DNA from: Solirubrobacterales bacterium
GTDB taxonomy: Bacteria; Actinomycetota; Thermoleophilia; Solirubrobacterales; Solirubrobacteraceae
Direction: 5' to 3'
Assembly (NCBI GenBank): GCA_003244205.1
Contig: QHBW01000060.1
Span: forward strand, 1-64,000
DNA length: 64,000 nt
The notes beneath the pieces are model-generated. The model saw only the letters and a program-made list of their open reading frames with translations. It did no database searches and had not been told where the DNA came from. The position numbers and the translations under genes were made by a program. Shown here in pieces: positions 22,135 through 44,624 of this stretch. Each line of letters begins with the position of its first letter. Positions within the stretch are counted from its first letter, which is position 1.

Positions 22135-22764
22135 CTACTTGATCAGCGGGCCGGCGGCGGCGAGGACTTGCTTCTTCGTCAATGGCTTGTCGAATCCCGC
22201 CGTCGGCGTCGGGCTCTTGCCGAGCAGCAGGTTGATCGCTGCGGCGTGGCGTGCCTCGACCTGCACAATCGAGCCCGCCGCTGCAAGCACCATCTTGCTC
22301 GAGATCGACGGTGCCGCGCCGTTGTACGCACCAACGCCGGTGTTTTCGAGCACCGAGGCCAAGGCCAGGAAGCTCGACTGCGAGGTCGCGGGGAAGGAGA
22401 ACTTCGGCTTCTTCACTGGCGTCCCCCCGAGCTGCTTGATCGCCGCCTCGAGCGCACTCACGTGGGCGGCTTCCTCTTCGCCGAACTGGGTCGCGTAGGC
22501 CTTCGCTTGGCCGCTGAGCCCAACTTGCTTACCCTTGACGGTGTAGAAGTCGGCCTCTAGGTATTCGAGCGTGAGCGCGAAGTTCAGGATGTCGACATCG
22601 CCTCCGCCCGTCTGCGCGAACGCCTGGGAAACGAACGGTCCCACCGCGGCCGTGCCGTAGACCGCGCCGGCGGCGAGCGCTCCGCGCAGGATGAAGGCCC
22701 CGCGCGTCACGCCATGCACCTCGCATGCGGCGAGCTGGGGGTTGGCTAGATCATGATTGGTCAT
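22135..22764 (-). CDS. Ferritin-like exported protein 1
   Basis: 209 residues. An N-terminal export signal (TRGAFILRGALAAGAVYGTAAVG...AQ, ~20-50) precedes a ferritin-like four-helix domain of the Ferritin_2 type. Likely diiron ligands sit in LTLEYLEADFY (~65-74), EEEAAHVSAL (~95-105) and VEARHAAAI (~172-181). The signal keeps the spacing of a Tat motif, but the second arginine is Gly. It shares obvious similarity with the genes at 22801 and 23889. Ribosome site GAGAGGAA lies upstream of the ATG. Probable role: metal or peroxide handling at the cell surface, or desiccation-related; unproven. Confidence 0.85.
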   Translation of the reverse strand: MTNHDLANPQLAACEVHGVTRGAFILRGALAAGAVYGTAAVGPFVSQAFAQTGGGDVDILNFALTLEYLEADFYTVKGKQVGLSGQAKAYATQFGEEEAAHVSALEAAIKQLGGTPVKKPKFSFPATSQSSFLALASVLENTGVGAYNGAAPSISSKMVLAAAGSIVQVEARHAAAINLLLGKSPTPTAGFDKPLTKKQVLAAAGPLIK

Positions 22765-22800
22765 CTGGTGAATTCCTCTCGATTGAGGCAGCTGGCTGGC

Positions 22801-23517
22801 TCAGCCCAAGAACGGCTTGACCGCCGCCAGGACCGTCGGGATATCTGCCGGCTTGGCGAACGCGCCATCAGGAACGACAGACTTGTGGACGAGCGTGCCG
22901 AGCGTCGCTGCGTGACGCGCTTCGACGGAGTGGATCGAAAGTGCGGCGGCAAGCACCGCCTTGCTCTGAATGTTGCCGGCCTGGCCGAGATACGCGGCCG
23001 CGCCGAGGTTTTCCACGGTGTAAGCGAGCATCGCCACTTGACTGGCGCTCGAGACAGGGAACTTGCCGTTCGGCTTGGCCGCCGGCTTGCCGCCAGCGCC
23101 GGTGATCGCCGCCTTCAGCGCGGTCACGTGTGACTGCTCTTGGCTACCGAACTCCTTCAGCAGCGAACCGACCTTGCCGGAAAACAGACCAGCCTTCACC
23201 ACCTTGTTGTAGAACTCCGTCTCCAGATACTCGAGCGTCAGCGCGTAGTTCAAGATCCCCAAGTCGCCGCTCCCAAACGGGTTCGCCCCGGATGTGGACG
23301 GCGGGGCGGTGGTAGCCGGCGCGGGCGCCGTCGAGCTCGACGACGAGCTCGACGAACTACTACTGCCGCACGCAGCCAGCACGAACGCGCCGAAGCTCGC
23401 GGCCCCCGCGCTCCCAGCCATCTTCAAAAACCGCTTGCGCTCGACGTCGTCGCGCACAAGATGCTCGACGATCCCCGCCGGCTGCGGCGCGGATTCCTCT
23501 CCGGAATGAGTCGACAT
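22801..23517 (-). CDS. Ferritin-like lipoprotein 2
   Basis: 238 residues. A charged N-region (ERKRFLKMAG, ~26-35) and hydrophobic segment end in the lipobox LAAC (~47-50), followed by an 11-residue serine run and an Ala/Pro/Thr linker, then a ferritin-like domain. Likely metal ligands lie in LTLEYLETEFY, GSQEQSHVTAL and SVEARHAATL. The Arg-Lys pair resembles a variant Tat motif. The long linker suggests the domain is tethered away from the membrane. A strong GGAGG ribosome site lies 8 nt from the ATG, suggesting high expression. It is a paralogue of its two neighbours, 36 nt upstream of ferritin-like gene 1. Confidence 0.87.
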   Translation of the reverse strand: MSTHSGEESAPQPAGIVEHLVRDDVERKRFLKMAGSAGAASFGAFVLAACGSSSSSSSSSSSTAPAPATTAPPSTSGANPFGSGDLGILNYALTLEYLETEFYNKVVKAGLFSGKVGSLLKEFGSQEQSHVTALKAAITGAGGKPAAKPNGKFPVSSASQVAMLAYTVENLGAAAYLGQAGNIQSKAVLAAALSIHSVEARHAATLGTLVHKSVVPDGAFAKPADIPTVLAAVKPFLG

Positions 23518-23888
23518 CTACAACACCTCCGATTTGCGATTGAGAACCGACGCTGGTCGCAGCGTGTGCCCTCGGATCCCGCCGAGCCGTAGCGACCCGA
23601 ACGGACCTGCCTGTTCCCCTATTGCGGAGCTGATCGACTTTCGGATCACTCTCGTCCGTTTCTGTTGCCGCTGGCGCAACGCTTCGACCTTCATCCGCCG
23701 CCCGCACAGCGCCCAGACACGGTCCTTGGTCACCCCGCGGTCCCGAGCAGAAAGCTCGGGAAATTCGGCGCTTCGCGAATAGTCCGCGGTCGCGGTGCGA
23801 GCTCTCTCTGAGGCCGGTGAGCCGCACTTGAGCGCGCGAGGCCGCTCCGGGGAGTTCGGCACTCGCGCGCAGCAAGCGTGATGCCTGG
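23518..23888. other. Gene-free spacer between ferritin-like genes 2 and 3
   Basis: 371 bases with no convincing coding frame; short ORFs here lack any family resemblance. It holds a perfect 7-bp hairpin (CCCGAGC-AGAAA-GCTCGGG) at 23742-23760 without an adjacent T-run, and the ribosome site of gene 2 near 23526-23530. It presumably contains the promoter of ferritin-like genes 2 and 1, but no clear -35/-10 pair was identified. Confidence 0.5.
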
Positions 23889-24581
23889 CTAGCCGACGAT
23901 GAACTTCGTCTTCTTCACGCCGTCCAGCACCTTGTCCGCGCTGAGCGGTTTGTCAAACGGCGAGGGAGCGATCGGCAGACCGGTGATCGATGCGATCGCA
24001 CCGGTGTGACGGGCCTCGATTGTGACGATCGACAGCGCGGTCAGCAGGATGGGCTTCGACTTGATGTTGCCCGCTTGCCCGCTGTAGGCACCTACGCCGG
24101 TCTTCTCGAGCGTATAGGCGGTCTGCTGGAACGTAGCCAGGTCCGTCACAGCTGCGCCGAAGTTGAACTTCGGCTTCTTGAGGGCCTTGCTGCCCAGCGC
24201 CGTCTTCAGCGCCCTGACATGCGCATCCTCGTCCTTCCTGACGACCTTGAGGAAGGTAGTTGTCTTGCCGGTGCTGTCGCCTGCGCCGACGTTGTTGTGA
24301 TCGGCTTGGTCATAGAACGCCATCTCCAGGTACTCGAGCGTGAGCGCGAAGCGAAGGATGGCGATGTCGCCATGGCCGAACGTCTTCGCGGGCGGACGGC
24401 CTGCTGCCATGGCCGCCGGCGCGGCGAGGGCGCCCAGAACGGCGCCGCTGCCCGCGACGCCCGCTACGCCGACGCCGGCCTTCTTGAGGAAGCTGAGGCG
24501 GGTGTCCTGATAAGCCTCCTCGGCGCCCTCGCGAACGGCTCCGTCGACATCGATCTGTCCAAGGTGGAGCTCGGGATTCAT
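23889..24581 (-). CDS. Ferritin-like exported protein 3
   Basis: 230 residues from ATG 24581, which has a strong AAGGAG ribosome site 8 nt upstream; the in-frame extension to 24791 is discarded. A leader (TRLSFLKKAGVGVAGVAG...AAPAAMAAG, ~26-62) keeps the FLK part of a Tat motif but has Arg-Leu instead of Arg-Arg. The ferritin-like domain follows, with likely metal ligands in LTLEYLEMAFY, KDEDAHVRAL and TIEARHTGAI. It is the most upstream of three paralogues and may carry its own promoter, given the 371-nt spacer downstream. Confidence 0.87.
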   Translation of the reverse strand: MNPELHLGQIDVDGAVREGAEEAYQDTRLSFLKKAGVGVAGVAGSGAVLGALAAPAAMAAGRPPAKTFGHGDIAILRFALTLEYLEMAFYDQADHNNVGAGDSTGKTTTFLKVVRKDEDAHVRALKTALGSKALKKPKFNFGAAVTDLATFQQTAYTLEKTGVGAYSGQAGNIKSKPILLTALSIVTIEARHTGAIASITGLPIAPSPFDKPLSADKVLDGVKKTKFIVG

Positions 24582-25077
24582 AGGATGATCTCCTTGATTG
24601 TCGGGAGGGAGCCGGCCATCGGACGATGACCTCTCCCGGGGTCCCGTAGTGGATGAGGCAGACGTAGCGGTAAGGCTCTGGTCGGGCGAGCGTGACCTGT
24701 AGCTGCCCCTACTGCGGGCATGCCCCAGCGAAAGGGAAAGCCTGCCCACCCGCTGGTCACAGTGACCCTCACCCGGGTTCCATCCCACCACTCGCGGCGC
24801 AAGTGTTAACGCGTCGGGCCACGACTCGCTACGGATTGAGCGGCCGTTTCCGCTAGATCACCCCTTGCTCCCGGGCGAACCGCTACCGCCTGGCGTCGGC
24901 CGACGACGGCGCCTCGCGCGAGCATTCGCACGGGCACAGCGAGCAACGCCGGCCCAGCTGCAGCCAGCGTGACGACGAGAATGGTTCGTGAGGACTGACC
25001 GTAGAACATATCGCCAGCATTAGGGGCCGGCAGATGGATAAGCGCACCAGCTCCCCCGCTGGATCACCTGAGCGTCG
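24582..25077. other. Gene-poor region upstream of ferritin-like gene 3
   Basis: About 500 bases without a supported gene. A 67-codon minus-strand ORF (24806-25009) with one hydrophobic stretch is the only candidate and has no recognised relatives or clear ribosome site. The region leads into an integrase remnant and tRNA-Met and may be degraded mobile DNA. The promoter for ferritin-like gene 3 should lie near its left end. Confidence 0.45.
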
Positions 25078-26926: not shown

Positions 26927-27570
26927 TGGACGTCCACGGCTTGACCGTCGGGCCGCTCGCGGAGAATTGCTTCGTCGTCCGCCGGGACGGGGCCGCCGAG
27001 GCGATCGTCGTCGACCCCGGCGACGAGGCCGAACGCATTCTCAGCGCGCTGCGATCGCTGCGGATCGACACCGTGGAGGCGGTCCTGCTCACCCACACCC
27101 ACTTCGACCACATCGGCGCGGTGGGCCCGGTCGCGCGCGCGACCGGCGCGCCCGTGTACTGCCCCAGAATCGAGCGCGATGTGCTCGCCCACATCATGGA
27201 CTACGTCCCGTGGCGCGGCTTTGGCCCGTTCGAGAGCTATGAGGCCGACGTGCTGGTGGATGGTGGCGAGACGCTCGAGCTCGCCGGCCTCACGCTGGAC
27301 GTGATCTTCACTCCGGGGCACAGCCCGGGCCACGTCTCCTACTCGATCAACGACGAGCTCGGCTTGCTCTCGGGGGACGTCCTCTTCCAGGGCTCGGTCG
27401 GGCGCGTCGATCTCCCTGGAGGAGACTGGGCGACGCTCGAGCGCTCGATCGCGCGCCTGCTCGGCGCGCTCCCCGACGAGACCCGCGTCTATCCCGGGCA
27501 CATGGGGGAGACGACATTGGGGCGCGAGCGAGCCACGAATCCATTCCTGCAGGCGCTGGCCGGGCGTTGA
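26926..27570 (+). CDS. MBL-fold metallo-hydrolase (glyoxalase II-like)
   Basis: 214 residues with the metallo-β-lactamase signature HTHFDH (57-62), a later HSPGH, LLSGDVLFQGSVGRVDLPGGD and YPGHMGETTLGRE with the last histidine ligand. The pattern GSVGRxDLPGGD is typical of glyoxalase II-like hydrolases adjoining hisS in many bacteria. The longer frame from 26737 overlaps the previous gene, so ATG 26926 is used. It overlaps hisS by 4 nt (TTGA). Likely substrates are S-lactoyl-thiol esters or other hydrolysable esters; not determined. Confidence 0.88.
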   Translation: MDVHGLTVGPLAENCFVVRRDGAAEAIVVDPGDEAERILSALRSLRIDTVEAVLLTHTHFDHIGAVGPVARATGAPVYCPRIERDVLAHIMDYVPWRGFGPFESYEADVLVDGGETLELAGLTLDVIFTPGHSPGHVSYSINDELGLLSGDVLFQGSVGRVDLPGGDWATLERSIARLLGALPDETRVYPGHMGETTLGRERATNPFLQALAGR

Positions 27571-28805
27571 GCGAACGGATCCAGGCGCCGCGCGGCACGC
27601 AGGACGTGCTGGGCGAGCAGGCTGTTGCCCGAGCCGAGCTCGAGCACCGCGCCCATGCGGTGCTGGACGCAGCCGGCTACGCGCGCATCGAGACGCCGGC
27701 GTTCGAGGCGACCGAGCTGTTCGCGCGCGGGGTAGGGGAGTCGACCGACGTGGTGCAGAAGCAGATGTACACCTTCAGCGACGCGGGTGGCCGCTCGCTG
27801 ACGCTGCGGCCGGAGGGCACGGCGCCGGTCTGCCGCGCCTACCTCCAGCACGGCATGGCCCGCCTTCCCCAGCCGGTCAAGCTCTGGTACCTCTCGAGCT
27901 TCTTTCGCTACGAGCGCGCACAGGCGGGCCGCTACCGCCAGTTCTGGCAGGTGGGCGCCGAGGCGATCGGCTCCGATGACCCCGCCGTCGACGCCGAGAC
28001 GATCCTGTTGCTGGCCGAGCTGCTCGAGGAGCTTGGGGTCCGCGCGCGACTGCGGCTCGGCTCGCTCGGCACGCTCGACGCACGCAACCGCTACCGCGAG
28101 CGGCTCGCCAGCCACTTGCACGCCCACGCCGCCGAGCTGTCGGCGGAGGTGCGCGAGCGCATCGACGCCAATCCACTGCGCGCGTTTGACTCCGATCACG
28201 CGGGGACGCGCGCGGTCACCGCGCGCGCGCCCAAGCTGCTCGATGCGCTCGACCCCGACGACGTAGAGCACTTCGCCGCGGTCCGCGCGCTGCTCGACGA
28301 TGCCGGGCTCCCCTACGACGTCGACGCGACGCTCGTGCGTGGTCTCGACTACTACACGCGCACGGTGTTCGAGTTCGACTCCCCGCAGCTCGGAGCGCAG
28401 AGCGGCGTCGGCGGCGGCGGGCGCTACGACGGCCTGATCGAAGCGCTCGGCGGCCTGCCCACGCCGGGATGTGGATTTGCGGCTGGCGCGGAGCGCATCC
28501 TGCTGGCCGGCGAGAACGTGCCGTTGCCGACAGCGACGGTCGACATCTACGTCGGCTACACCAACCCCGACCGGCGACGGACCGCCTTTGCGCTGGCGCT
28601 AGCGGCCCGCCGCGCGGGCTTGAATGCGCAGGTCGAGCTCGCCGGCCGCTCGCTGAAGGGGCAGCTCAAGCACGCCGACCGCATCGGCGCTCGTCTGCTC
28701 GCCCTCGTCGAGGCCGAGGCGACGGCGCTGAAGGAGATGGAGACGGGAGAGCAGGTCACGCTTGGCGATGACGCCGTCGTGGCAGAGGCTCTGCGGCGGC
28801 GATGA
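27567..28805 (+). CDS. hisS: Histidine-tRNA ligase
   Basis: 412 residues, class-II synthetase. Motif 1 region is IETPAFEATELF, motif 2 LWYLSSFFRYERAQAGRYRQFWQVGAEAIG, the histidine-specific loops LVRGLDYYTRTVFEF and GGGGRYDGL, and motif 3 GCGFAAGAERILL; a C-terminal anticodon-binding domain (VDIYVGYTN…) follows. The start is TTG, overlapping the MBL stop; the typical N-terminus IQAPRGTQDVL begins five codons on. It ends in a 4-nt overlap with aspS, the classic hisS-aspS arrangement. Confidence 0.96.
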   Translation: MSERIQAPRGTQDVLGEQAVARAELEHRAHAVLDAAGYARIETPAFEATELFARGVGESTDVVQKQMYTFSDAGGRSLTLRPEGTAPVCRAYLQHGMARLPQPVKLWYLSSFFRYERAQAGRYRQFWQVGAEAIGSDDPAVDAETILLLAELLEELGVRARLRLGSLGTLDARNRYRERLASHLHAHAAELSAEVRERIDANPLRAFDSDHAGTRAVTARAPKLLDALDPDDVEHFAAVRALLDDAGLPYDVDATLVRGLDYYTRTVFEFDSPQLGAQSGVGGGGRYDGLIEALGGLPTPGCGFAAGAERILLAGENVPLPTATVDIYVGYTNPDRRRTAFALALAARRAGLNAQVELAGRSLKGQLKHADRIGARLLALVEAEATALKEMETGEQVTLGDDAVVAEALRRR

Positions 28806-30586
28806 AGGCGATGAAGCAGCCTCCGCGTCCCAACCGCTACCGCGACACGTGGTGTGGCGCCCCCGACCTGCAGATGGCGGGAGAGCGGATCGCGGTGGCG
28901 GGGTGGGTCCATCGTCGCCGCGATCATGGCGGCCTCATCTTCATCGACCTGCGCGACCGCTCAGGGCTGCTCCAGCTCGTCTTCCGTCCCGATTTCGCCG
29001 AGGCCCACGGGGCCGCTCACCGGCTGCGCTCCGAGGACGTCGTCAGCGTCACCGGGACGCTCACCGGCCGCGAGCCCGAGAACGTCAATCGCGAGCTGTC
29101 CACCGGCGCCGTCGAGCTCGTGGTCGAAAGCTTCAAACTGCTGGCGACCTCTGCCACGCCGCCCTTTCCAATCGACTCCGACGGGCCCGTCGACGAGTCT
29201 CTGCGGCTGCGCCATCGCGCCATCGACCTCCGCCGCGCGTCCCCCCTGAGCGCGCTCGAGTTGCGCCACGACGTGATCGCCACGATTCGCGCTGAGCTCG
29301 ACGCACGCGACTTCATCGCCGTCGAGACGCCACTGCTCACGCGATCGACCCCCGAGGGGGCGCGCGACTTCCTCGTTCCGGTGCGCGCGCCGCGCGGCGC
29401 CTTCTACGCGCTGCCGCAATCACCGCAACTCTTCAAGCAGCTGCTGATGGTCGGCGGGATCGAGCGCTACTACCAGATCGCCCGCTGCTTTCGCGACGAG
29501 CCCTCCCGCGCGGACCGCCAACCGGAGTTCACCCAACTCGACCTCGAGATGAGCTTCGTCGAGGAGGACGACGTGATCGAGCTGATGGAAGCGGTGATGG
29601 CAGCCGTTTTCGCGGTCGGCGGGATGGCCGACGCGATCGGTCCGCCGCCCTGGCCGCGGTTGTCCTACGACGAAGCGCTTCTGCGCTACGGCTCCGACAG
29701 CCCGGACACGCGTTTTGACCTCGAGATCGTCGAGGTCTCGGAGGCGCTGGCGTCCACCGAGGCACGCGTGTTCGCCGCGGCGCTCGGGTCTGGAGGGGTC
29801 GTGCGCGCGATCAACGCCGGGGCGCGCGAGCTTCCCCGCTCCGAGCTCGACGCGCTCGTCGAGCTCGCCCGCGAGCTGGGGGCGAAGGGGCTCGCGTATG
29901 CATTCATTGAAGAAGGTGGTGGTTGGCGGTCCCCGATCGCCAAGTTCATCTCCGAAAGCGAACGCGAAGCCGTGACTACTGCGCTGGACGCCCGCCCTGG
30001 AGACCTGCTGTTTTTCGTGGCCGACTCGGCACAGGTGACCGCGCGCGCTCTCGGGGGGCTGCGCCTCGAGCTATCGCGGCGCTTCGGCCTGCTCTCCGGC
30101 GCCGGCCACCGGGCGCTCTGGATGACCGATTTCCCAATGTTCGAGCGCGATCCGCAGACCGGTCACTGGGATCCATTGCATCACCCCTTCACGGCACCGG
30201 TGGGGGACCTCGACGATCCGGCCAGTCTGCGCTCGCGGGCCTACGACCTCGTCGTAGACGGCAGCGAGATCGGCGGGGGGTCGATCCGCACCCATTGTCC
30301 GGAGGTTCTGCGCCGGGTGCTCGAGCTCGTCGGGATCGCTCCGGACGAGGCCCAGGAGCGCTTCGGCTTTCTGATCGACGCGCTCGCCTACGGAGCGCCG
30401 CCGCACGGTGGCATCGCGATGGGCCTCGATCGGATCGTCGCGATCCTGGCCGGTGCCCCATCGATCCGCGACGTGATCGCCTTCCCCAAGACCGTCAGCG
30501 CGATGGATCCGCTCACCGGTGCGCCCGCCCCGGTGGACACCCAGCAGCTGCGTGAGCTGGGGCTGCGCGTCGATCTCAAGGGCTGA
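28802..30586 (+). CDS. aspS: Aspartate-tRNA ligase, probably non-discriminating (Asp/Asn)
   Basis: 594 residues of the bacterial AspRS type: N-terminal OB-fold anticodon domain (~1-120, GWVHRRRDHGGLIFIDLRD), class-II core with TPEGARDFLVP, the flipping-type loop QSPQLFKQLLMVGG, YYQIARCFRDE, an inserted GAD domain (~300-430) and the C-terminal GMGLDRI-type motif 3 (IAMGLDRIV). The histidine in RRDHGG corresponds to the position where non-discriminating enzymes have His and E. coli has Leu, so it probably also charges tRNA-Asn for later GatCAB amidation. The ATG overlaps hisS by 4 nt. Confidence 0.95.
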   Translation: MKAMKQPPRPNRYRDTWCGAPDLQMAGERIAVAGWVHRRRDHGGLIFIDLRDRSGLLQLVFRPDFAEAHGAAHRLRSEDVVSVTGTLTGREPENVNRELSTGAVELVVESFKLLATSATPPFPIDSDGPVDESLRLRHRAIDLRRASPLSALELRHDVIATIRAELDARDFIAVETPLLTRSTPEGARDFLVPVRAPRGAFYALPQSPQLFKQLLMVGGIERYYQIARCFRDEPSRADRQPEFTQLDLEMSFVEEDDVIELMEAVMAAVFAVGGMADAIGPPPWPRLSYDEALLRYGSDSPDTRFDLEIVEVSEALASTEARVFAAALGSGGVVRAINAGARELPRSELDALVELARELGAKGLAYAFIEEGGGWRSPIAKFISESEREAVTTALDARPGDLLFFVADSAQVTARALGGLRLELSRRFGLLSGAGHRALWMTDFPMFERDPQTGHWDPLHHPFTAPVGDLDDPASLRSRAYDLVVDGSEIGGGSIRTHCPEVLRRVLELVGIAPDEAQERFGFLIDALAYGAPPHGGIAMGLDRIVAILAGAPSIRDVIAFPKTVSAMDPLTGAPAPVDTQQLRELGLRVDLKG

Positions 30587-30609: not shown

Positions 30610-32079
30610 GTGGACCTGACCGCGTTCTCTGAGCACCTGGAGCATCCGGTGGGACTCGGTCGGATGCCGGACGAGGGCTTCTCAGGCGCAGCCGGCGGCT
30701 CGGCTTGCGGGGACATTGTGCGCGTGGATGTTGCCGTCGACGGCGAACGGGTCGTCGCTGCCGGCTTCGAAGCGCACGGGTGTGGGGCGATGGTGGCCGC
30801 CGGGAGCGCCGCGGTCACGCTGGTGCAGGGTGCGTCGCTGCTCGATGCCGCTCGCGTGGGGACCAAGGAAGTGAGCGCTGAGCTGGGTGGGTTGAGCGCG
30901 GGGAAGGTGCACGCCGCGGAACTGACAGCCGACGCGCTGCACCGCGCACTGGGGGCCGCCGTGCGCCACCGAGCGGCGCTCTCAACCGCGTCGGGGCGCA
31001 CGCTGGTCGCGCTGAGCGGCGGGGTGGACTCCGCCGTCGCGGCACTGCTGGTGGATCGCGAGGGCGGCGACGTCGTCGCGGTGACACTCGAGCTGTGGGC
31101 TGACGAGGGCCACGACGGTGAACGGTCCTGCTGCTCAGCTCAGGCGGTGCGCCGGGCGCGCGCGCTCGCGCACGGCATGGGCCTGGCTCACTTCACGATC
31201 GATCTGAGAGACGAGTTTCGCGCCGGAGTGGTGGGCCCGTACCTCGCGGCCCACGCCGCGGGCCAGACGCCGAACCCGTGCGTGCGCTGCAACGGCCACG
31301 TCCGCCTCGACGCGATGATCGAGCTAGCCGGGCGCCTCGGGGCCCCGCGACTGGCCACCGGCCACTACGCGCGCGTCGTCGATGACGAAGACGGGCCGCT
31401 GCTGCGCGCCGCGGTCGACGGCGTCAAGGACCAGAGCTACATGCTTGCCGCGCTCGCCCCGGAGTCGCTGGCGCGGCTGCGGTTTCCGCTGGGCGAGCTG
31501 ACCAAGCCGGAGGTGCGCGTCCTCGCCCGGGAGGCGGAGCTGCCGGTTGCCAGTGCACCGGAGTCACAGGATCTGTGCTTCCTCGCCGGCACCCGGCGGG
31601 ACGCGTTCCTCGCGCGTCACGGCGGCTTGCGTGCCCGCGAGGGGGACATCGTCGATCGCGCCGGCAAACGCGTTGGCCGCCATCGCGGTCACCACGCCTT
31701 CACGGTGGGTCAGCGCCGCGGCCTCGGGGTCGGGGGCGGCTCGCCGCTCTACGTCCTCGCCACCGACGCCGCCACCAACCGGGTGGTCGTCGGCCCCCGC
31801 GAAGCGCTCACGACCCAGCGGGTCGCCCTTGTCGATGTGGTGTTGCGGCGCCGGGGCGAGCGAGTCAACGCGGTCAAGCTGCGCTACCGCGGGCGTCCTC
31901 TGAGCTGTCGGATCGCTGGACCGGCGCCGATCGGCGCGCACGCAAGCCTCGAGCTCGAGCTGTCCGAGCCCGCCGGCGCCGGTGCGCCCGGTCAAGTCGC
32001 CTGCCTGATGTCGGGGGACGTCGTCGTGGGATGGGCGACGATCATCGCGCATTCCTGTACCGGCGTGGCCGCCCCGTGA
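30610..32079 (+). CDS. mnmA: Fusion of IscU/NifU-like domain with tRNA 2-thiouridylase MnmA
   Basis: 489 residues. Residues ~1-120 match an IscU-type Fe-S scaffold: SACGD (Cys33, Asp35), EAHGCGAM (Cys58) and KVHAAELTADAL, where His101 is kept but the third scaffold cysteine is Ala102. Residues ~130-489 are MnmA, which thiolates U34 of Lys/Glu/Gln tRNAs: PP-loop SGGVDS (136-141), catalytic NPCVRCN, second catalytic cysteine in ESQDLCFLAG, then the β-barrel C-terminus. The start is GTG 30610, 24 nt after aspS. The stop shares one base with alaS ATG. The fusion suggests the scaffold delivers sulfur or a cluster to MnmA; not demonstrated. Confidence 0.93.
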   Translation: MDLTAFSEHLEHPVGLGRMPDEGFSGAAGGSACGDIVRVDVAVDGERVVAAGFEAHGCGAMVAAGSAAVTLVQGASLLDAARVGTKEVSAELGGLSAGKVHAAELTADALHRALGAAVRHRAALSTASGRTLVALSGGVDSAVAALLVDREGGDVVAVTLELWADEGHDGERSCCSAQAVRRARALAHGMGLAHFTIDLRDEFRAGVVGPYLAAHAAGQTPNPCVRCNGHVRLDAMIELAGRLGAPRLATGHYARVVDDEDGPLLRAAVDGVKDQSYMLAALAPESLARLRFPLGELTKPEVRVLAREAELPVASAPESQDLCFLAGTRRDAFLARHGGLRAREGDIVDRAGKRVGRHRGHHAFTVGQRRGLGVGGGSPLYVLATDAATNRVVVGPREALTTQRVALVDVVLRRRGERVNAVKLRYRGRPLSCRIAGPAPIGAHASLELELSEPAGAGAPGQVACLMSGDVVVGWATIIAHSCTGVAAP

Positions 32080-34733
32080 TGACCTCCAAGGAGATCCGCG
32101 GGCGCTTCCTGGAGTACTTCGCCGAGCGCGATCACCGCCTGCTGCGCTCGGGGTCGCTGGTCCCTGCCGAGCACGACCCTTCCGTGCTGCTGACGACCGC
32201 AGGCATGCAGCCGCTGAAGCCGTACTTCGAAGGGAGCGAGCAGCCACCGCATCCGCGGCTGGCGAGCTGCCAGAAGGTGTTTCGCGCGGTCGACATCGAT
32301 CAGGTGGGGCTGACCACCCGCCACCTCACCTTCTTCGAGATGTTGGGCAACTTCTCGGTCGGCGACTACTTCAAGCAGGGCGCGGTCGAGTATGCGTGGC
32401 AGCTCTCGTTGGAGGGGTTCGGGCTCGATCCCGAGATGATCTGGATCACGGTCTTCGAGGGCGACGACGAGCTGGGGCTCGGACCCGACGAGGAGGCGAT
32501 CGAGGCGTGGCTCTCTGTCGGCATCCCGCGCGAGCGGATCGTGGGCTGTCCGCGGTCGGAGAACTTCTGGCAGGCGGGCCCGATCGGTCCTTGCGGCCCC
32601 TGCTCGGAGCTCTACCTCGACCGCGGGCTCGCCTTTGGAGCGCCCGACGACCTGCCCGGCGCTGACAACGAGCGCTTTCTCGAGTACTGGAACCTCGTCT
32701 TCATGCAGTACCGGCAGGATCCCGCGAACACGCTCACACCGCTGCCAGGCAAGAACATCGACACGGGTCTCGGGCTCAACCGCATGGCGGCGATCCAGCA
32801 GGGCGTCGAGTCAGTCTTCGAGACCGACCAGTTCGTACCCCTGATCGAGCTCGGCGAGGAGCTCAGCGGACATCGCAGCGGCGAGTCGCCGGCGGTCGAC
32901 CGGGCGCTGCGGATCCTCGCCGACCACAGCCGGGGAATGAGCTTCCTCGTCGCCGACGGCGTCGTGCCCTCCAACGAGGACCGTGGCTATGTGCTGCGCC
33001 GCGTCATGCGACGCGCGATCCAGCAGGGCCGTGGGCTGGAGATGGCGCCCGGATTCCTCGCGCGCTTCGGCGATCGCGTCGTCGAGGTCATGGGTTCCGC
33101 CTACCCGGAGCTGCACGAGCAGCGTGCGGCGATCGAGCAGTGGCTCGCCAGCGAGGAGGAGGGCTTCGGGCGCACGCTCGAGCAGGGGACTCGCCTGCTG
33201 AGCGAGGTCATCGCCGCCGCGCGCGAGCGCGGCGAGGACGCGATTGCCGCCGCCGACGCCTTCCAGCTGCACGACACCTACGGCTTTCCGATCGACGTCA
33301 CGCTGGAGCTCGCATCCGCAGCCGGACTCGGTGTCGACGAAGCCGGCTTCTCGGCGTTGATGGACGCGCAGCGCCAGCGCGCGCGCGCGTCCGGCGGTAT
33401 CGCCGGGCGCTCGGGCGGCGGCGACGGCGAGCGCGGACAGAGGTGGGCCCAGAGCACCGGCTTCCGCACCGAATTCACCGGTTACAGCTCGATCGAGCAG
33501 TCGACCACCGTCGCGGCGCTCGAGCGCGAGGGTGGCCGCCTGCTCGCCAAGCTCGCCGAGTCCCCCTTCTATCCCGCCGGTGGCGGACAGGTCTCGGACT
33601 CGGGCGTGGTGGAGTGCGAGTCGGGTGACTGTCGCGCGCGCGTGGCCGAGGTACTGCGCCTGGGAGACGACCAGGCGCTCGTGCTCGAGCTCGAAGCGGG
33701 CGAGCTCGAACCCGGGGAACGTGTGCTCGCGCGCGTCGACGCGGCGACGCGCCACGCAACCGAGTGCAACCACACCGCGACTCATCTGCTGCACGCGGCG
33801 CTGCGCGAGCGGCTGGGCGACCATGTGCGCCAAGCGGGCTCGGCGGTCCAGCCCGGCAAGCTGCGCTTTGACTTCACCCACGGCGCCGCGCTGACCGACG
33901 CGGAGCTGCGCGATGTCGAGGACGAGGTCAACAGCCGCGTGCTCGCCAACCTGCCAGTGCGCGCGCTCACCACGACTCTCGACGAGGCCCGGCGGCTGGG
34001 CGCGATGGCCCTGTTCGGAGAGAAGTACGGCGAGGTCGTGCGGATGGTCGAGATCGGGGACGGATCGTTCTCCCGAGAGCTCTGCGGTGGCACGCATGTG
34101 CGCCGCACCGCCGAGATCAGTGTGTTCAAGATCGTCTCGGAGAGCTCCAGCGCGGCCAACGTTCGCCGCATTGAGGCGGTCACCGGGCCTGTGGCGGTGG
34201 CGCTGCTGCGTCGTCACGACGCGCTCCTCGAAGACGTCGCCGAGCGTCTGCGGACGTCGCCGGAGGGCGTCGTCGAGGCGCTCGAGACGCGCGAGCGGCA
34301 GCGGCGCGAGCTCGAGCGCGCAGCCAGCGGCGCAGACGGCGCCGCCGCCGGCGCGGCGGGAGTGGACATAGAGGAGCTGTTTGGGCGCGTGCAGCAGATC
34401 GAGGGCGCGAACGTGCTCGTCGAGCAGGTTGTCGCCGGCGATGAGCAGTCGCTGCTGGCGACCCTGGATCGCGTCAAGGGCCGTCTCGACGATGCCGCCG
34501 TCGTGCTCGGCAGCGAGGTCCAGGGGCGCGTGGCGCTGGTCGCGGCCGTCGCCCCGGCGCTCGTCGAGCGTGGGGTCAAGGCCGGCGACGTCGTCAAGGC
34601 TGGCGCCGTCGCGGCCGGCGGCGGCGGCGGCGGACGCGACACCCTGGCGCGCGCAGGTGGACGCGACGTGGCAAGGCTCGGCGACGCGCTCGCGGCGGCG
34701 CGCGCGGCGATCTGCACCGCGCTCGAGAGCTGA
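32079..34733 (+). CDS. alaS: Alanine-tRNA ligase
   Basis: 884 residues. The class-II catalytic domain is first (EIRGRFLEYFAERDH, TFFEMLGNFSVGDYFK, NTGLGLNR-like DTGLGLNRMAAI), then the editing domain with zinc-binding CNHTATHLLHAALRE and CGGTHVRRT, and the C-terminal DHHA1 oligomerisation domain ending GGGGGGRDTLARAGG. ATG 32079 overlaps the mnmA stop; GTG 32076 is an alternative. The frame stays open ~500 nt upstream as an artefact of base composition. AlaRS length in bacteria is ~870-890, in agreement. Confidence 0.97.
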   Translation: MTSKEIRGRFLEYFAERDHRLLRSGSLVPAEHDPSVLLTTAGMQPLKPYFEGSEQPPHPRLASCQKVFRAVDIDQVGLTTRHLTFFEMLGNFSVGDYFKQGAVEYAWQLSLEGFGLDPEMIWITVFEGDDELGLGPDEEAIEAWLSVGIPRERIVGCPRSENFWQAGPIGPCGPCSELYLDRGLAFGAPDDLPGADNERFLEYWNLVFMQYRQDPANTLTPLPGKNIDTGLGLNRMAAIQQGVESVFETDQFVPLIELGEELSGHRSGESPAVDRALRILADHSRGMSFLVADGVVPSNEDRGYVLRRVMRRAIQQGRGLEMAPGFLARFGDRVVEVMGSAYPELHEQRAAIEQWLASEEEGFGRTLEQGTRLLSEVIAAARERGEDAIAAADAFQLHDTYGFPIDVTLELASAAGLGVDEAGFSALMDAQRQRARASGGIAGRSGGGDGERGQRWAQSTGFRTEFTGYSSIEQSTTVAALEREGGRLLAKLAESPFYPAGGGQVSDSGVVECESGDCRARVAEVLRLGDDQALVLELEAGELEPGERVLARVDAATRHATECNHTATHLLHAALRERLGDHVRQAGSAVQPGKLRFDFTHGAALTDAELRDVEDEVNSRVLANLPVRALTTTLDEARRLGAMALFGEKYGEVVRMVEIGDGSFSRELCGGTHVRRTAEISVFKIVSESSSAANVRRIEAVTGPVAVALLRRHDALLEDVAERLRTSPEGVVEALETRERQRRELERAASGADGAAAGAAGVDIEELFGRVQQIEGANVLVEQVVAGDEQSLLATLDRVKGRLDDAAVVLGSEVQGRVALVAAVAPALVERGVKAGDVVKAGAVAAGGGGGGRDTLARAGGRDVARLGDALAAARAAICTALES

Positions 34734-41916: not shown

Positions 41917-43083
41917 ATGGCGCTTCGCCTGATCACCGCCGGCGAATCACACGGGCCGGGGCTCACCTGCATTGTGGAAGGGCTACCGGCTGGTCTGCGA
42001 CTGCGCCCAGAGGAGCTGGACAGCGACCTCGCGCGCCGCCAGCTCGGCCACGGCCGGGGCGGGCGCATGAAGATCGAGAACGACCGCGCCGAGGTGACGG
42101 GCGGCATCCGACACGGCGTCACCCTGGGCGGGCCGATCGCGCTACAAGTCGCCAATCGCGACTACGAGAACTGGCGCGAGCGCATGAGTCCATGGCCGGT
42201 GGACGCCGACATCGAAGAGGTTCACCTGCCCCGTCCGGGGCACGCCGATCTCGTCGGCACCCAGAAGTACAAGCTCACCGACGTTCGCGACGTGCTCGAG
42301 CGCGCGAGCGCCCGCGAGACGGCGGCGCGTGTGGCGGGCGGCTCACTGGCGCGGGCCTTCCTGCGGGAGATGGGGGTGCACGTGGTGTCCCACGTGACCC
42401 AGATCGGCGCGATCCACACCCACGTTGAGGAACCGCTCGAGCTCCACGACTTCCTCGAGGTCGACCACTCGCCGGTGCGCTGCCTGGATCCGGCGATCAG
42501 CCGCGCGATGGTCGAGGAGATCGATGCCCTGCGCAGGCGCAACGAGTCGCTGGGCGGCACGTTCGAGGTGCGGGCATTCGGGCTCGTTCCCGGTCTTGGC
42601 ACGCACGTCTCCTGGGAGCAGCGGCTCGACGGCCGCCTGGCGCTCGCGGTCGCCTCGATCCAGGCGATCAAGGGTGTGGCGCTGGGCGAAGGCTTCGCCC
42701 TGGCCGGCAAGCCCGGCTCAGAAGCGCACGACGAGATCTTCCACTCAAGCGAGCGTGGCTTCTACCGCGAGACCAACCGGGCTGGAGGGTTGGAGGGGGG
42801 GATGACGACGGGCGAGCCGCTGATCGTCCGCGCGGCGATGAAGCCGCTGCCAACACTGACCAAGCCGCTGCGTTCCGTAGACATCGCGACGCACGCACCG
42901 GCGCAGGCCTTGCGTGAGCGGACGGACTCCTGCACGGTGCCGGCCGCGGGCGTCGTCGGGGAGGCGATGGTCGCGTTCGTGCTCGCCAACGCCTACCGTC
43001 AAAAGTTCGGCGGCGACCACATCGACGACGTGTGCGACGCGGTCACCGCCTACCGCGAGCGGATCGACTGGCGGACGCGGTAG
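41917..43083 (+). CDS. aroC: Chorismate synthase
   Basis: 388 residues. Family signatures GESHGPGLTCIVEGLPAGL (~9-27), RRQLGHGRGGRMKIENDRAEVTGGIRHGVTLGGPIAL, and the RPGHADLVGTQKY block and GGMTTGEPLIVRAAMKPLPTL are all present. It converts 5-enolpyruvylshikimate-3-phosphate to chorismate using reduced FMN. The frame is open upstream to 41812, but ATG 41917 is the conserved start. It is followed after 5 nt by the aroK-aroB fusion. Confidence 0.97.
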   Translation: MALRLITAGESHGPGLTCIVEGLPAGLRLRPEELDSDLARRQLGHGRGGRMKIENDRAEVTGGIRHGVTLGGPIALQVANRDYENWRERMSPWPVDADIEEVHLPRPGHADLVGTQKYKLTDVRDVLERASARETAARVAGGSLARAFLREMGVHVVSHVTQIGAIHTHVEEPLELHDFLEVDHSPVRCLDPAISRAMVEEIDALRRRNESLGGTFEVRAFGLVPGLGTHVSWEQRLDGRLALAVASIQAIKGVALGEGFALAGKPGSEAHDEIFHSSERGFYRETNRAGGLEGGMTTGEPLIVRAAMKPLPTLTKPLRSVDIATHAPAQALRERTDSCTVPAAGVVGEAMVAFVLANAYRQKFGGDHIDDVCDAVTAYRERIDWRTR

Positions 43084-43088
43084 CAGGC

Positions 43089-44624
43089 ATGGGCGCGGGC
43101 GCGCTCGTCTTCATCGGCTTCATGGGCGCGGGCAAGTCGACCGCCGCCTCCACGGCCGCGCAGCGACTGGGGGGCGAGGCGATCGACACCGACGCGCTGC
43201 TCGAAGCCGAGCTCCGCACCGAGATCGGTGCGTATTTCGATCGACACGGCGAAACCGCATTTCGCGAGCACGAGGAGCGCGTCGCGCTCGAGACGCTCGC
43301 GCGCGCCGGCGAGCGCGACGCCGTGGCGCTCGGCGGGGGAGCGCTCAGCTCGGCGCGCGTCCGCGCGGCGCTCGCGAGCCACGTCACCGTCTTCGTCGAG
43401 GTCGCCGCAGAGGTGGCGTGGCAACGGGTCTCGCTCACCGGCGCCGATCGCCCGCTCGCGCGAGATCGTGAAGCGTTCATCGCGCTCCACGGTGCTCGCC
43501 AGGAGGTCTACGAGCGAGCCGCGAAGGCCTTCCTGATGCAGGGCGCCAATCTGATTTGGGCGCTCGAGCACCTGCTCGCGCTGCGCGATGGCCGCTGGGC
43601 GGCCTCGGCGCGCCTGGTGCTGGCGGCCTCAGCGTCGGGTAGCTATCCAGTCTGGTTCGGCAGCGGGTTGCTCGCCGGCGGACTGCGACACGCGGAGCCA
43701 GACCGCGAGCGCTTTCTCGTCTCCGACGAGACCGTTGGCCGCCTCTATGGCGACCGGATCTCCCCGGTCGCCGCCAAGCTGCTGATCACGCCTGGCGAGC
43801 AGCACAAGACACTCGCCCAGGCGGAGGCGGTATGGCGCTGGCTGGTCGCCGCCGGCGCCACGCGCGCCTCGACCGTCGTTGCGCTCGGCGGGGGAGTGGT
43901 GGGGGATCTGGCGGGGTTTTGCGCGGCTACCTATCAACGTGGCATCCCCGTCTGGCAGGTACCGACGACGCTGGTGGCCCAGGTGGACTCGGCGCTCGGC
44001 GGCAAGACCGGCGTCGACCTGCCCGAGGCTAAGAACTACGTAGGTGCCTATCACCAACCCGCGCTCGTGCTCGTGGACCCGGCCGTGCTGGAGACGCTAC
44101 CCCCGGTCGAGGTCGCCGCAGGGTTTGCCGAGGTCCTCAAGACGGCGCTGATCGCCGGCGGTGAGTTGTGGTCCCACGTACGCCACGATCGACCTCTCGA
44201 CGAGCTCGTGCTGTTGCGCTGCATCCGCACGAAGCTTGGCGTGGTCGCGGCAGACGAGCGCGACAGCGGCGTTCGCCAGGTGCTCAATCTCGGTCACACC
44301 GTCGGCCACGCGATCGAGGCTGCGACTGGCTACGCGCGCTATCGCCACGGCGAGGCTGTCGGCCTCGGGCTGCTGGCCGCACTGCGGCTGTCGGGCGCCG
44401 ACGCGCTGCGCTCCGAGGTGCTCTCGCTGCTCGGCGCCCATCAGCTGCCGACGGTGCTGGAAGGGGTCGAGACAGACATCGTGGTCGCCGCCACGAGACA
44501 CGACAAGAAACGCACCGCCGACCGCGTCCCCTTCGTCCTACTGGCAGACCCCGGCCACCCCGAGCCAGGTCGAGAGGTCACCGACGACGACTTGCGAGCA
44601 GCCGTGGCAGAGTTGGGCGCGTGA
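43089..44624 (+). CDS. aroKB: Bifunctional shikimate kinase / 3-dehydroquinate synthase
   Basis: 511 residues combining two shikimate-pathway enzymes. Residues ~1-170 are shikimate kinase: Walker A GFMGAGKST (10-18), AIDTDALLE, FREHE and ALGGGAL. Residues ~175-511 are dehydroquinate synthase: TPGEQHKTLAQAE, ALGGGVVGDLAGFCAATYQRG, QVDSALGGKTGVDLPEAKNYVGAYHQP, LNLGHTVGHAIEA and HGEAVGLG with the zinc ligands. The two catalyse non-consecutive steps (5 and 2). ATG 43089 is used; the stop overlaps aroQ by 4 nt (GTGA). Confidence 0.96.
   Translation: MGAGALVFIGFMGAGKSTAASTAAQRLGGEAIDTDALLEAELRTEIGAYFDRHGETAFREHEERVALETLARAGERDAVALGGGALSSARVRAALASHVTVFVEVAAEVAWQRVSLTGADRPLARDREAFIALHGARQEVYERAAKAFLMQGANLIWALEHLLALRDGRWAASARLVLAASASGSYPVWFGSGLLAGGLRHAEPDRERFLVSDETVGRLYGDRISPVAAKLLITPGEQHKTLAQAEAVWRWLVAAGATRASTVVALGGGVVGDLAGFCAATYQRGIPVWQVPTTLVAQVDSALGGKTGVDLPEAKNYVGAYHQPALVLVDPAVLETLPPVEVAAGFAEVLKTALIAGGELWSHVRHDRPLDELVLLRCIRTKLGVVAADERDSGVRQVLNLGHTVGHAIEAATGYARYRHGEAVGLGLLAALRLSGADALRSEVLSLLGAHQLPTVLEGVETDIVVAATRHDKKRTADRVPFVLLADPGHPEPGREVTDDDLRAAVAELGA

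What the first reader, a model, noticed from the sequence alone, without database searches (positions are those of the whole stretch)
30610..32079. IscU/NifU-like scaffold domain fused to MnmA
One continuous frame carries an IscU-like domain (Cys33, Asp35, Cys58, His101 kept; third scaffold Cys replaced by Ala102) followed by a full MnmA with its PP-loop and both catalytic cysteines. Sulfur transfer to MnmA normally comes from a desulfurase through relay proteins, and Fe-S-dependent thiouridylases have been reported. A built-in scaffold could be a direct sulfur or Fe-S supply. Two Cys instead of three suggests altered cluster binding.
Basis: partly seen in the sequence, partly recalled or inferred. 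Interest (0 to 1): 0.75.

Follow-up and report, generated by a model that had tools for sequence, protein, structure and literature searches.

The report
Trimmed NifU domain fused to MnmA
In this bacterium and most of its relatives, the enzyme that puts sulfur on the wobble base of tRNA carries at its front a remodelled iron-sulfur scaffold domain that has lost one of its five key residues, so it is probably a built-in docking and sulfur-relay part rather than a cluster builder; I found no description of it.

Summary
The fusion is real: one 489-residue frame (30610-32079, +) encodes a NifU_N domain (Pfam 1e-19; predicted fold like IscU, Z 20.6) followed by a complete MnmA. It is not an artefact: most families of the class that I read in detail have it, with losses in some, and a few other lineages of the phylum have it too; a MnmA tree rejects a single fused clade.

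The likely source is the operon iscS-nifU-mnmA(-alaS), which survives unfused in one family of the class. Free NifU neighbours keep all five scaffold residues (15 of 16). None of 116 fused domains does: 99 keep Cys-Asp-Cys plus exactly one of the following His or Cys. In the window's order (61 genes) Cys33, Asp35, Cys58 and His101 are invariant and the third Cys never occurs. These four are the published iron ligands of free ISCU; the lost one is ISCU's persulfide acceptor.

The window's genome has one clear desulfurase, SufS; the order lacks SufE and mostly TusA. I infer a built-in SufU-like docking and sulfur-relay domain feeding MnmA; function is untested. A new variant of a known kind; a proposed SufE-like domain on Plasmodium MnmA is the closest parallel.

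The parts
30610..32079 (+). nifU-mnmA fusion gene (489 aa, GTG start; stop overlaps the alaS ATG by one base)
30631..30954 (+). NifU_N domain, residues 8-115
   Evidence: PF01592 1e-19, 5.4e-21 alone; model aligns to IscU 4eb5_C with Z 20.6 over 133 residues
30706..30708 (+). Cys33: first scaffold Cys; equivalent of the SufU persulfide acceptor (Cys40 in M. tuberculosis SufU) and of ISCU2 Cys69
   Evidence: invariant in 61/61 of the order and 20/20 of f5
30712..30714 (+). Asp35: metal-site Asp (ISCU2 Asp71)
   Evidence: invariant in 61/61
30781..30783 (+). Cys58: second scaffold Cys (ISCU2 Cys95)
   Evidence: invariant in 61/61
30910..30912 (+). His101 (ISCU2 His137)
   Evidence: invariant in 61/61
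30913..30915 (+). Ala102: position of the lost third Cys (ISCU2 Cys138, persulfide acceptor)
   Evidence: 58 Ala, 2 Gly, 1 Val, never Cys, in 61 genes
30898..30969 (+). continuous helix 97-120 that ends the NifU domain and leads to MnmA
   Evidence: AlphaFold2 model, pLDDT 93.9, pTM 0.91
31000..32043 (+). MnmA moiety, residues 131-478
   Evidence: NF001138 5.9e-97; Z 35.8 to 2hma, 34.3 to E. coli MnmA-tRNA 2deu
31015..31032 (+). PP-loop SGGVDS (136-141)
31129..31134 (+). CC pair (Cys174-Cys175) of the CC-CxxC-C type MnmA
   Evidence: type described in PMC11784392
31279..31290 (+). Cys224-x-x-Cys227
   Evidence: invariant in 59 fused proteins
31576..31578 (+). Cys323, equivalent of E. coli Cys199 (inferred from the motif)
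27567..28805 (+). hisS, upstream neighbour
   Evidence: named from its sequence; same gene near the fusion in relatives
28802..30586 (+). aspS, directly upstream
32079..34733 (+). alaS, directly downstream, overlapping by one base

Best explanation
The gene encodes a MnmA (tRNA uridine-34 2-thiolase) with a NifU-derived N-terminal domain that works like SufU rather than like a cluster scaffold. The domain binds one metal ion (Zn or Fe) through Cys33, Asp35, Cys58 and His101, docks on the cysteine desulfurase (SufS here; a NifS-type enzyme encoded next door in some relatives), takes persulfide sulfur on Cys33 and hands it to MnmA's active-site cysteines (Cys323 with Cys224/Cys227), which thiolate U34. 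Shown: the fusion, its conservation, its predicted fold, the invariant four-residue site, the loss of the fifth residue, and SufS as the one clear desulfurase of the genome. Inferred: metal binding, docking, Cys33 as acceptor, transfer to MnmA.
For: Invariance: in 61 genes of the order, whose domains share a median of 51% identity, only 8 of 114 columns are strictly invariant, and they include all four ligand positions (about 1e-5 by chance, ignoring relatedness). Four-of-five rule: free NifU 15/16 have C,D,C,H,C; fused 0/116; 99 fused have CDC plus exactly one of H or C3, none has CDC with neither. The two sets match published four-residue sites: C-D-C-H in free ISCU and C-D-C plus third Cys with the His replaced, as in SufU. 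Cys33 is the last residue to go: of 16 well-aligned domains with a broken core, 13 keep it, against 1 for Asp35 and 7 for Cys58. Operon logic: NifS-type desulfurase directly upstream of the fusion in f23, f10, f11, and unfused iscS-nifU-mnmA in f6. Sulfur supply: own genome has one clear desulfurase, SufS (TIGR01979, 544 bits), with the HPHD motif that contains the SufU ligand-swap His; in the order no SufE in 9/9 and no TusA in 7/9 genomes. Fold: N-domain Z 20.6 to IscU from an IscS-IscU complex and 14.3 to SufU.
Against: No metal, docking or sulfur transfer has been measured. ISCU accepts persulfide on the very Cys that is lost here, so the relay must go by the SufU route, and the SufU-specific insert is absent. 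Family f7 (MnmA with only an 80-residue, Cys-free remnant) and some f8 members (no domain) do without the site, and the checked f7 genome (G009) shows SufS but no NifS-type enzyme among the proteins tested. B. subtilis MnmA takes sulfur directly from YrvO (PMC5372745), so a relay is not needed in principle. A separate SufU is present and could serve MnmA.
Confidence: 0.45

Rival explanations
1. Docking or structural domain only. The NifU-derived domain recruits the desulfurase, or stabilises MnmA, and its metal site is structural; sulfur passes straight from the desulfurase persulfide to MnmA.
For: f7 keeps a conserved, confidently folded mini-domain (three strands and a helix, pLDDT above 90) with no site residues left. 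NifU domains bind desulfurases in solved complexes (4eb5, 3lvl). MnmA can be served directly by a desulfurase (PMC5372745).
Against: It does not explain why Cys33 outlasts Asp35 and Cys58 in decayed domains, nor why exactly one of H/C3 is kept whenever CDC is intact.
Confidence: 0.27
2. Iron or Fe-S supply. The domain holds iron, or a labile cluster, and loads the [4Fe-4S] cluster proposed for CxxC-C type MnmA.
For: The MnmA moiety is of the CC-CxxC-C type, and T. thermophilus MnmA of the CxxC-C type carries a [4Fe-4S] cluster (PMC8584467). Free ISCU binds iron with C, D, C, H.
Against: The persulfide-accepting Cys is missing in most fused domains. Unfused MnmA of f6, f8 and others have the same MnmA cysteines, so the cluster, if any, does not depend on fusion. 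SufBCD in the same genome can make clusters.
Confidence: 0.18
3. Fossil of the operon: the fusion arose by loss of the stop codon between nifU and mnmA and the domain is decaying without function.
For: Fused domains sit on long branches compared with free NifU; several lineages have lost the site or the domain.
Against: In the window's order and in f5 the four site residues are invariant in 81 of 81 genes although the domain diverges to 31% identity within the order; that is purifying selection, not decay.
Confidence: 0.07
4. True Fe-S scaffold: the domain builds clusters as IscU does.
For: NifU_N homology and IscU fold.
Against: No fused domain has the full five-residue assembly site; free, intact NifU or SufU copies occur elsewhere in the genomes.
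Confidence: 0.03

Closest known systems
Clostridial-type NifU / IscU scaffold (PF01592; TIGR03419)
   Same: Fold (Z 20.6 to A. fulgidus IscU), the C-G-D, G-C and H positions, and a gene order iscS-nifU-mnmA seen unfused in family f6
   Different: Third Cys (persulfide acceptor of ISCU2) lost; context changed from LPPQKMHC in free NifU to LSAGKVHA; fused to MnmA; below the equivalog cut-off (71.1 of 187.9 bits)
SufU (zinc sulfur-transfer protein)
   Same: Same fold (Z 14.3), a four-residue site, SufS as the likely partner; some fused lineages keep C-D-C plus the third Cys, as SufU does
   Different: No SufU insert between second and third Cys, TIGR01994 27.6 bits of 92.5; the window protein has the His and lacks the third Cys; covalently attached to the sulfur acceptor
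Plasmodium falciparum apicoplast MnmA with an N-terminal SufE-like domain (PMC10219651)
   Same: A domain proposed to take sulfur from SufS, placed N-terminal to MnmA
   Different: SufE-like rather than NifU-derived, detected by structure modelling only, eukaryotic organelle; function there also untested
B. subtilis YrvO-MnmA
   Same: Desulfurase gene next to mnmA in some relatives; no Tus relay
   Different: MnmA there has no extra domain; sulfur passes directly from a dedicated desulfurase (PMC5372745)

Membership tests
MnmA (tRNA 2-thiouridine(34) synthase) | Equivalog score above curated cut-off | tested here: met
   NF001138 324.7 of 284; TIGR00420 273.2 of 236.95
MnmA (tRNA 2-thiouridine(34) synthase) | PP-loop SGGxDS and catalytic Cys pair | tested here: met
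   SGGVDS 136-141, Cys224/Cys227 and Cys323
MnmA (tRNA 2-thiouridine(34) synthase) | Forms s2U34 in tRNA | not testable with these tools
   needs an assay
NifU_N superfamily (PF01592) | Pfam gathering score | tested here: met
   71.4 of 22 bits
IscU/NifU scaffold (TIGR03419, TIGR01999) | Equivalog score above cut-off | tested here: not met
   71.1 of 187.9; 55.9 of 192.4
IscU/NifU scaffold (TIGR03419, TIGR01999) | Three scaffold cysteines plus Asp and His | tested here: not met
   Third Cys is Ala102; never Cys in 61 relatives
IscU/NifU scaffold (TIGR03419, TIGR01999) | Assembles a [2Fe-2S] cluster | not testable with these tools
   needs spectroscopy
SufU | TIGR01994 score above cut-off | tested here: not met
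   27.6 of 92.5
SufU | 21-23 residue insert between second and third Cys; third Cys; Lys in place of His | tested here: not met
   His101 and Ala102; spacing as in IscU, no insert
SufU | Zinc-dependent sulfur acceptor from SufS via the first Cys | not testable with these tools
   Cys33 present and invariant in the order; activity untested

The most novel reading that the evidence does not exclude
When NifU is fused to MnmA, evolution repeatedly removes one of the five cluster-assembly residues (the third Cys or the His before it) and so turns a cluster scaffold into a four-ligand, SufU-like metal-bound sulfur relay in cis with its acceptor: a direct desulfurase-to-tRNA route without Tus proteins.
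Probability: 0.4. Interest if true: 0.7.

Novelty: new variant of a known kind. Interest (0 to 1): 0.55.

Why it matters
How sulfur reaches MnmA outside E. coli and Bacillus, and whether an Fe-S cluster takes part, is disputed (PMC11784392). A natural fusion of a trimmed scaffold to MnmA, with relatives that keep the three genes apart, keep only a Cys-free remnant, or have no domain, gives a ready series for testing which step needs which residue. It also shows how a scaffold fold may turn into a sulfur-transfer domain.

Tried and rejected
Sequencing artefact or chance frame: rejected by conservation in 61 genes of the order. Internal start that would also make MnmA alone: an in-frame GTG with GGGGG upstream sits at residue 118, but only 4 of 60 genes of the order have a start plus SD-like site in the linker. 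Third Cys simply tracking a neighbouring desulfurase gene: f10 and f11 have both, but f23 has the desulfurase next door and no third Cys. Single origin of all fusions: rejected by the AU test, though separate fusions and later losses cannot be told apart on this tree. A named-genome scan with the single protein gave only two loci, one a Conexibacter. Ten paper searches: none of the papers listed was found to describe a NifU- or IscU-MnmA fusion (a paper on class markers was read by keyword); only open-licence PMC papers are held. Distances in the model could not be measured because no coordinates are given. Phyla other than the window's own were not searched for the fusion, apart from the one scan with the single protein.

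Full report
Observation. The frame at 30610-32079 (+) is open for 489 codons and encodes NifU_N (residues 8-115) followed by a complete MnmA (131-478), both far above curated cut-offs. The best solved relatives of the N-terminal part are IscU/NifU proteins, and the alignment puts Cys33, Asp35, Cys58 and His101 on the scaffold residues with Ala102 in place of the third Cys. The MnmA part is of the CC-CxxC-C type (type names from PMC11784392). The gene lies between hisS-aspS and alaS and overlaps alaS by one base.

Fold. AlphaFold2 on an alignment of 59 fused proteins from fetched loci gives pLDDT 93.9 and pTM 0.91. The N-domain aligns to A. fulgidus IscU of an IscS-IscU complex (Z 20.6, 2.2 A, 133 residues) and to SufU (Z 14.3); residues 127-484 align to TrmU/MnmA (Z 35.8, 2.1 A). 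A continuous helix (97-120) leads from the first domain towards the second. Distances were not available.

Distribution. A search with the whole protein matched 290 of 299 genomes of the class; many of these matches cover the N-terminal domain too. Loci read in detail show the fusion in families f1-f5 and f8-f12 (f-codes are the tool's family codes); f6 has separate iscS, nifU and mnmA genes; four f8 members have no domain; f7 has an 80-residue remnant that still matches the domain profile (whole-sequence E 8e-7 to 6e-5 in a set of 14) and is predicted to fold (three strands, one main helix) without any site residue. Elsewhere in the phylum the fusion occurs in f23 (NifS-type desulfurase gene directly upstream, alaS downstream) and in f16, f55, f72 and f73. 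Unfused nifU-mnmA neighbours occur in f29, f51, f67 and f68. A MnmA tree puts f16/f55/f72/f73 apart from the main group, and the AU test rejects all fused rows as one clade. So the fusion arose, or was undone, more than once, from an operon in which the genes are neighbours.

The site. In 61 genes of the window's order the N-domain has a median pairwise identity of 51% (minimum 31%). Only 8 of 114 columns are strictly invariant: G29, C33, D35, C58, A63, G94, H101, A109. All four candidate ligands are among them (about 1e-5 by chance if columns were exchangeable); position 102 is Ala 58, Gly 2, Val 1, Cys 0. In f5 all four are invariant in 20 of 20, with no third Cys. Over all lineages read, 15 of 16 free NifU have C,D,C,H,C, whereas 0 of 116 fused domains do. 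99 fused domains have C-D-C with exactly one of H and C3 (89 H, 10 C3), none has C-D-C with neither; the other 17 were scored as a broken core, one of which (L063) is a misaligned row that in fact has C-D-C-H. Of the 16 truly broken ones 13 keep Cys33, 7 Cys58, 1 Asp35. Sequences are related, so these counts are not independent events; on the tree the C3-type state needs five changes among fused rows.

What the residues mean. In free ISCU2, iron is held by Cys69, Asp71, Cys95 and His137, and Cys138 receives the persulfide from the desulfurase (PMC11021402). These correspond to Cys33, Asp35, Cys58, His101 and the lost residue. In M. tuberculosis SufU the first scaffold Cys (Cys40) receives the persulfide, zinc swaps ligands to SufS His354, and a Lys stands where IscU has His (PMC10216065). 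Both kinds of four-residue set are found among fused domains. The window's genome has one clear desulfurase, SufS (TIGR01979 543.8 of 475.1 bits), with the HPHD motif around that His, and a separate SUF operon with SufU; the assembly is 93% complete. Complete genomes of the order also hold a SufS-like best match; the further strong matches that were typed (in G081 and G139) fit SufS-type or desulfurase-like models rather than NifS/IscS. In nine genomes of the order there is no SufE, and TusA is found in two; the control genomes show that these searches can find the families.

Mechanism. I judge a built-in SufU-like docking and relay domain most likely (0.45): metal bound by C33, D35, C58, H101; persulfide taken on C33; sulfur passed to C323 of MnmA. 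Steps after the anatomy are inferred. The main rival is docking without relay, supported by f7, whose remnant lacks all site residues. Iron or cluster supply to MnmA is possible, but unfused MnmA have the same MnmA cysteines. A functioning cluster scaffold is unlikely.

Known or new. Each half is a known family; the parallel closest in idea is the SufE-like N-terminal domain proposed for Plasmodium MnmA (PMC10219651). I found no paper describing a NifU/IscU-MnmA fusion among open-licence PMC papers (ten searches), but subscription literature and database architecture listings were not searchable, so automatic annotation may already record the architecture. I therefore call it a new variant of a known kind.

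Noticed in passing
L043-L046, L114, L115, L118, L120 (family f7): MnmA with an 80-residue N-terminal remnant of the NifU domain, without any residue of the metal site, conserved among eight genomes and confidently folded in a model; its role is unknown.
   Followed up: partly
L121, L122, L125, L127, L132 (family f6, same class): Unfused operon of NifS-type desulfurase, intact NifU (CGD, GC, HC) and MnmA; a living picture of the arrangement before fusion.
   Followed up: partly
L148 (family f34), first 176 residues of the frame: N-terminal extension before the PP-loop that matches the NifU profile only weakly (two pieces, E about 0.002-0.004); possibly another decayed fusion.
   Followed up: no
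window 22135-24791 (-): Three neighbouring genes for similar proteins of 209, 238 and 300 residues that look like ferritin-like proteins with Tat-like or lipoprotein leaders; judged by eye only.
   Followed up: no
window 43032-44624 (+): One 530-residue frame that looks like shikimate kinase followed by 3-dehydroquinate synthase (aroK-aroB); judged by eye only.
   Followed up: no
L005, L007, L014, L015, L021, L027 (f1): The C-G-D motif is C-C-D here: a second cysteine directly after the equivalent of Cys33 in six genes.
   Followed up: no
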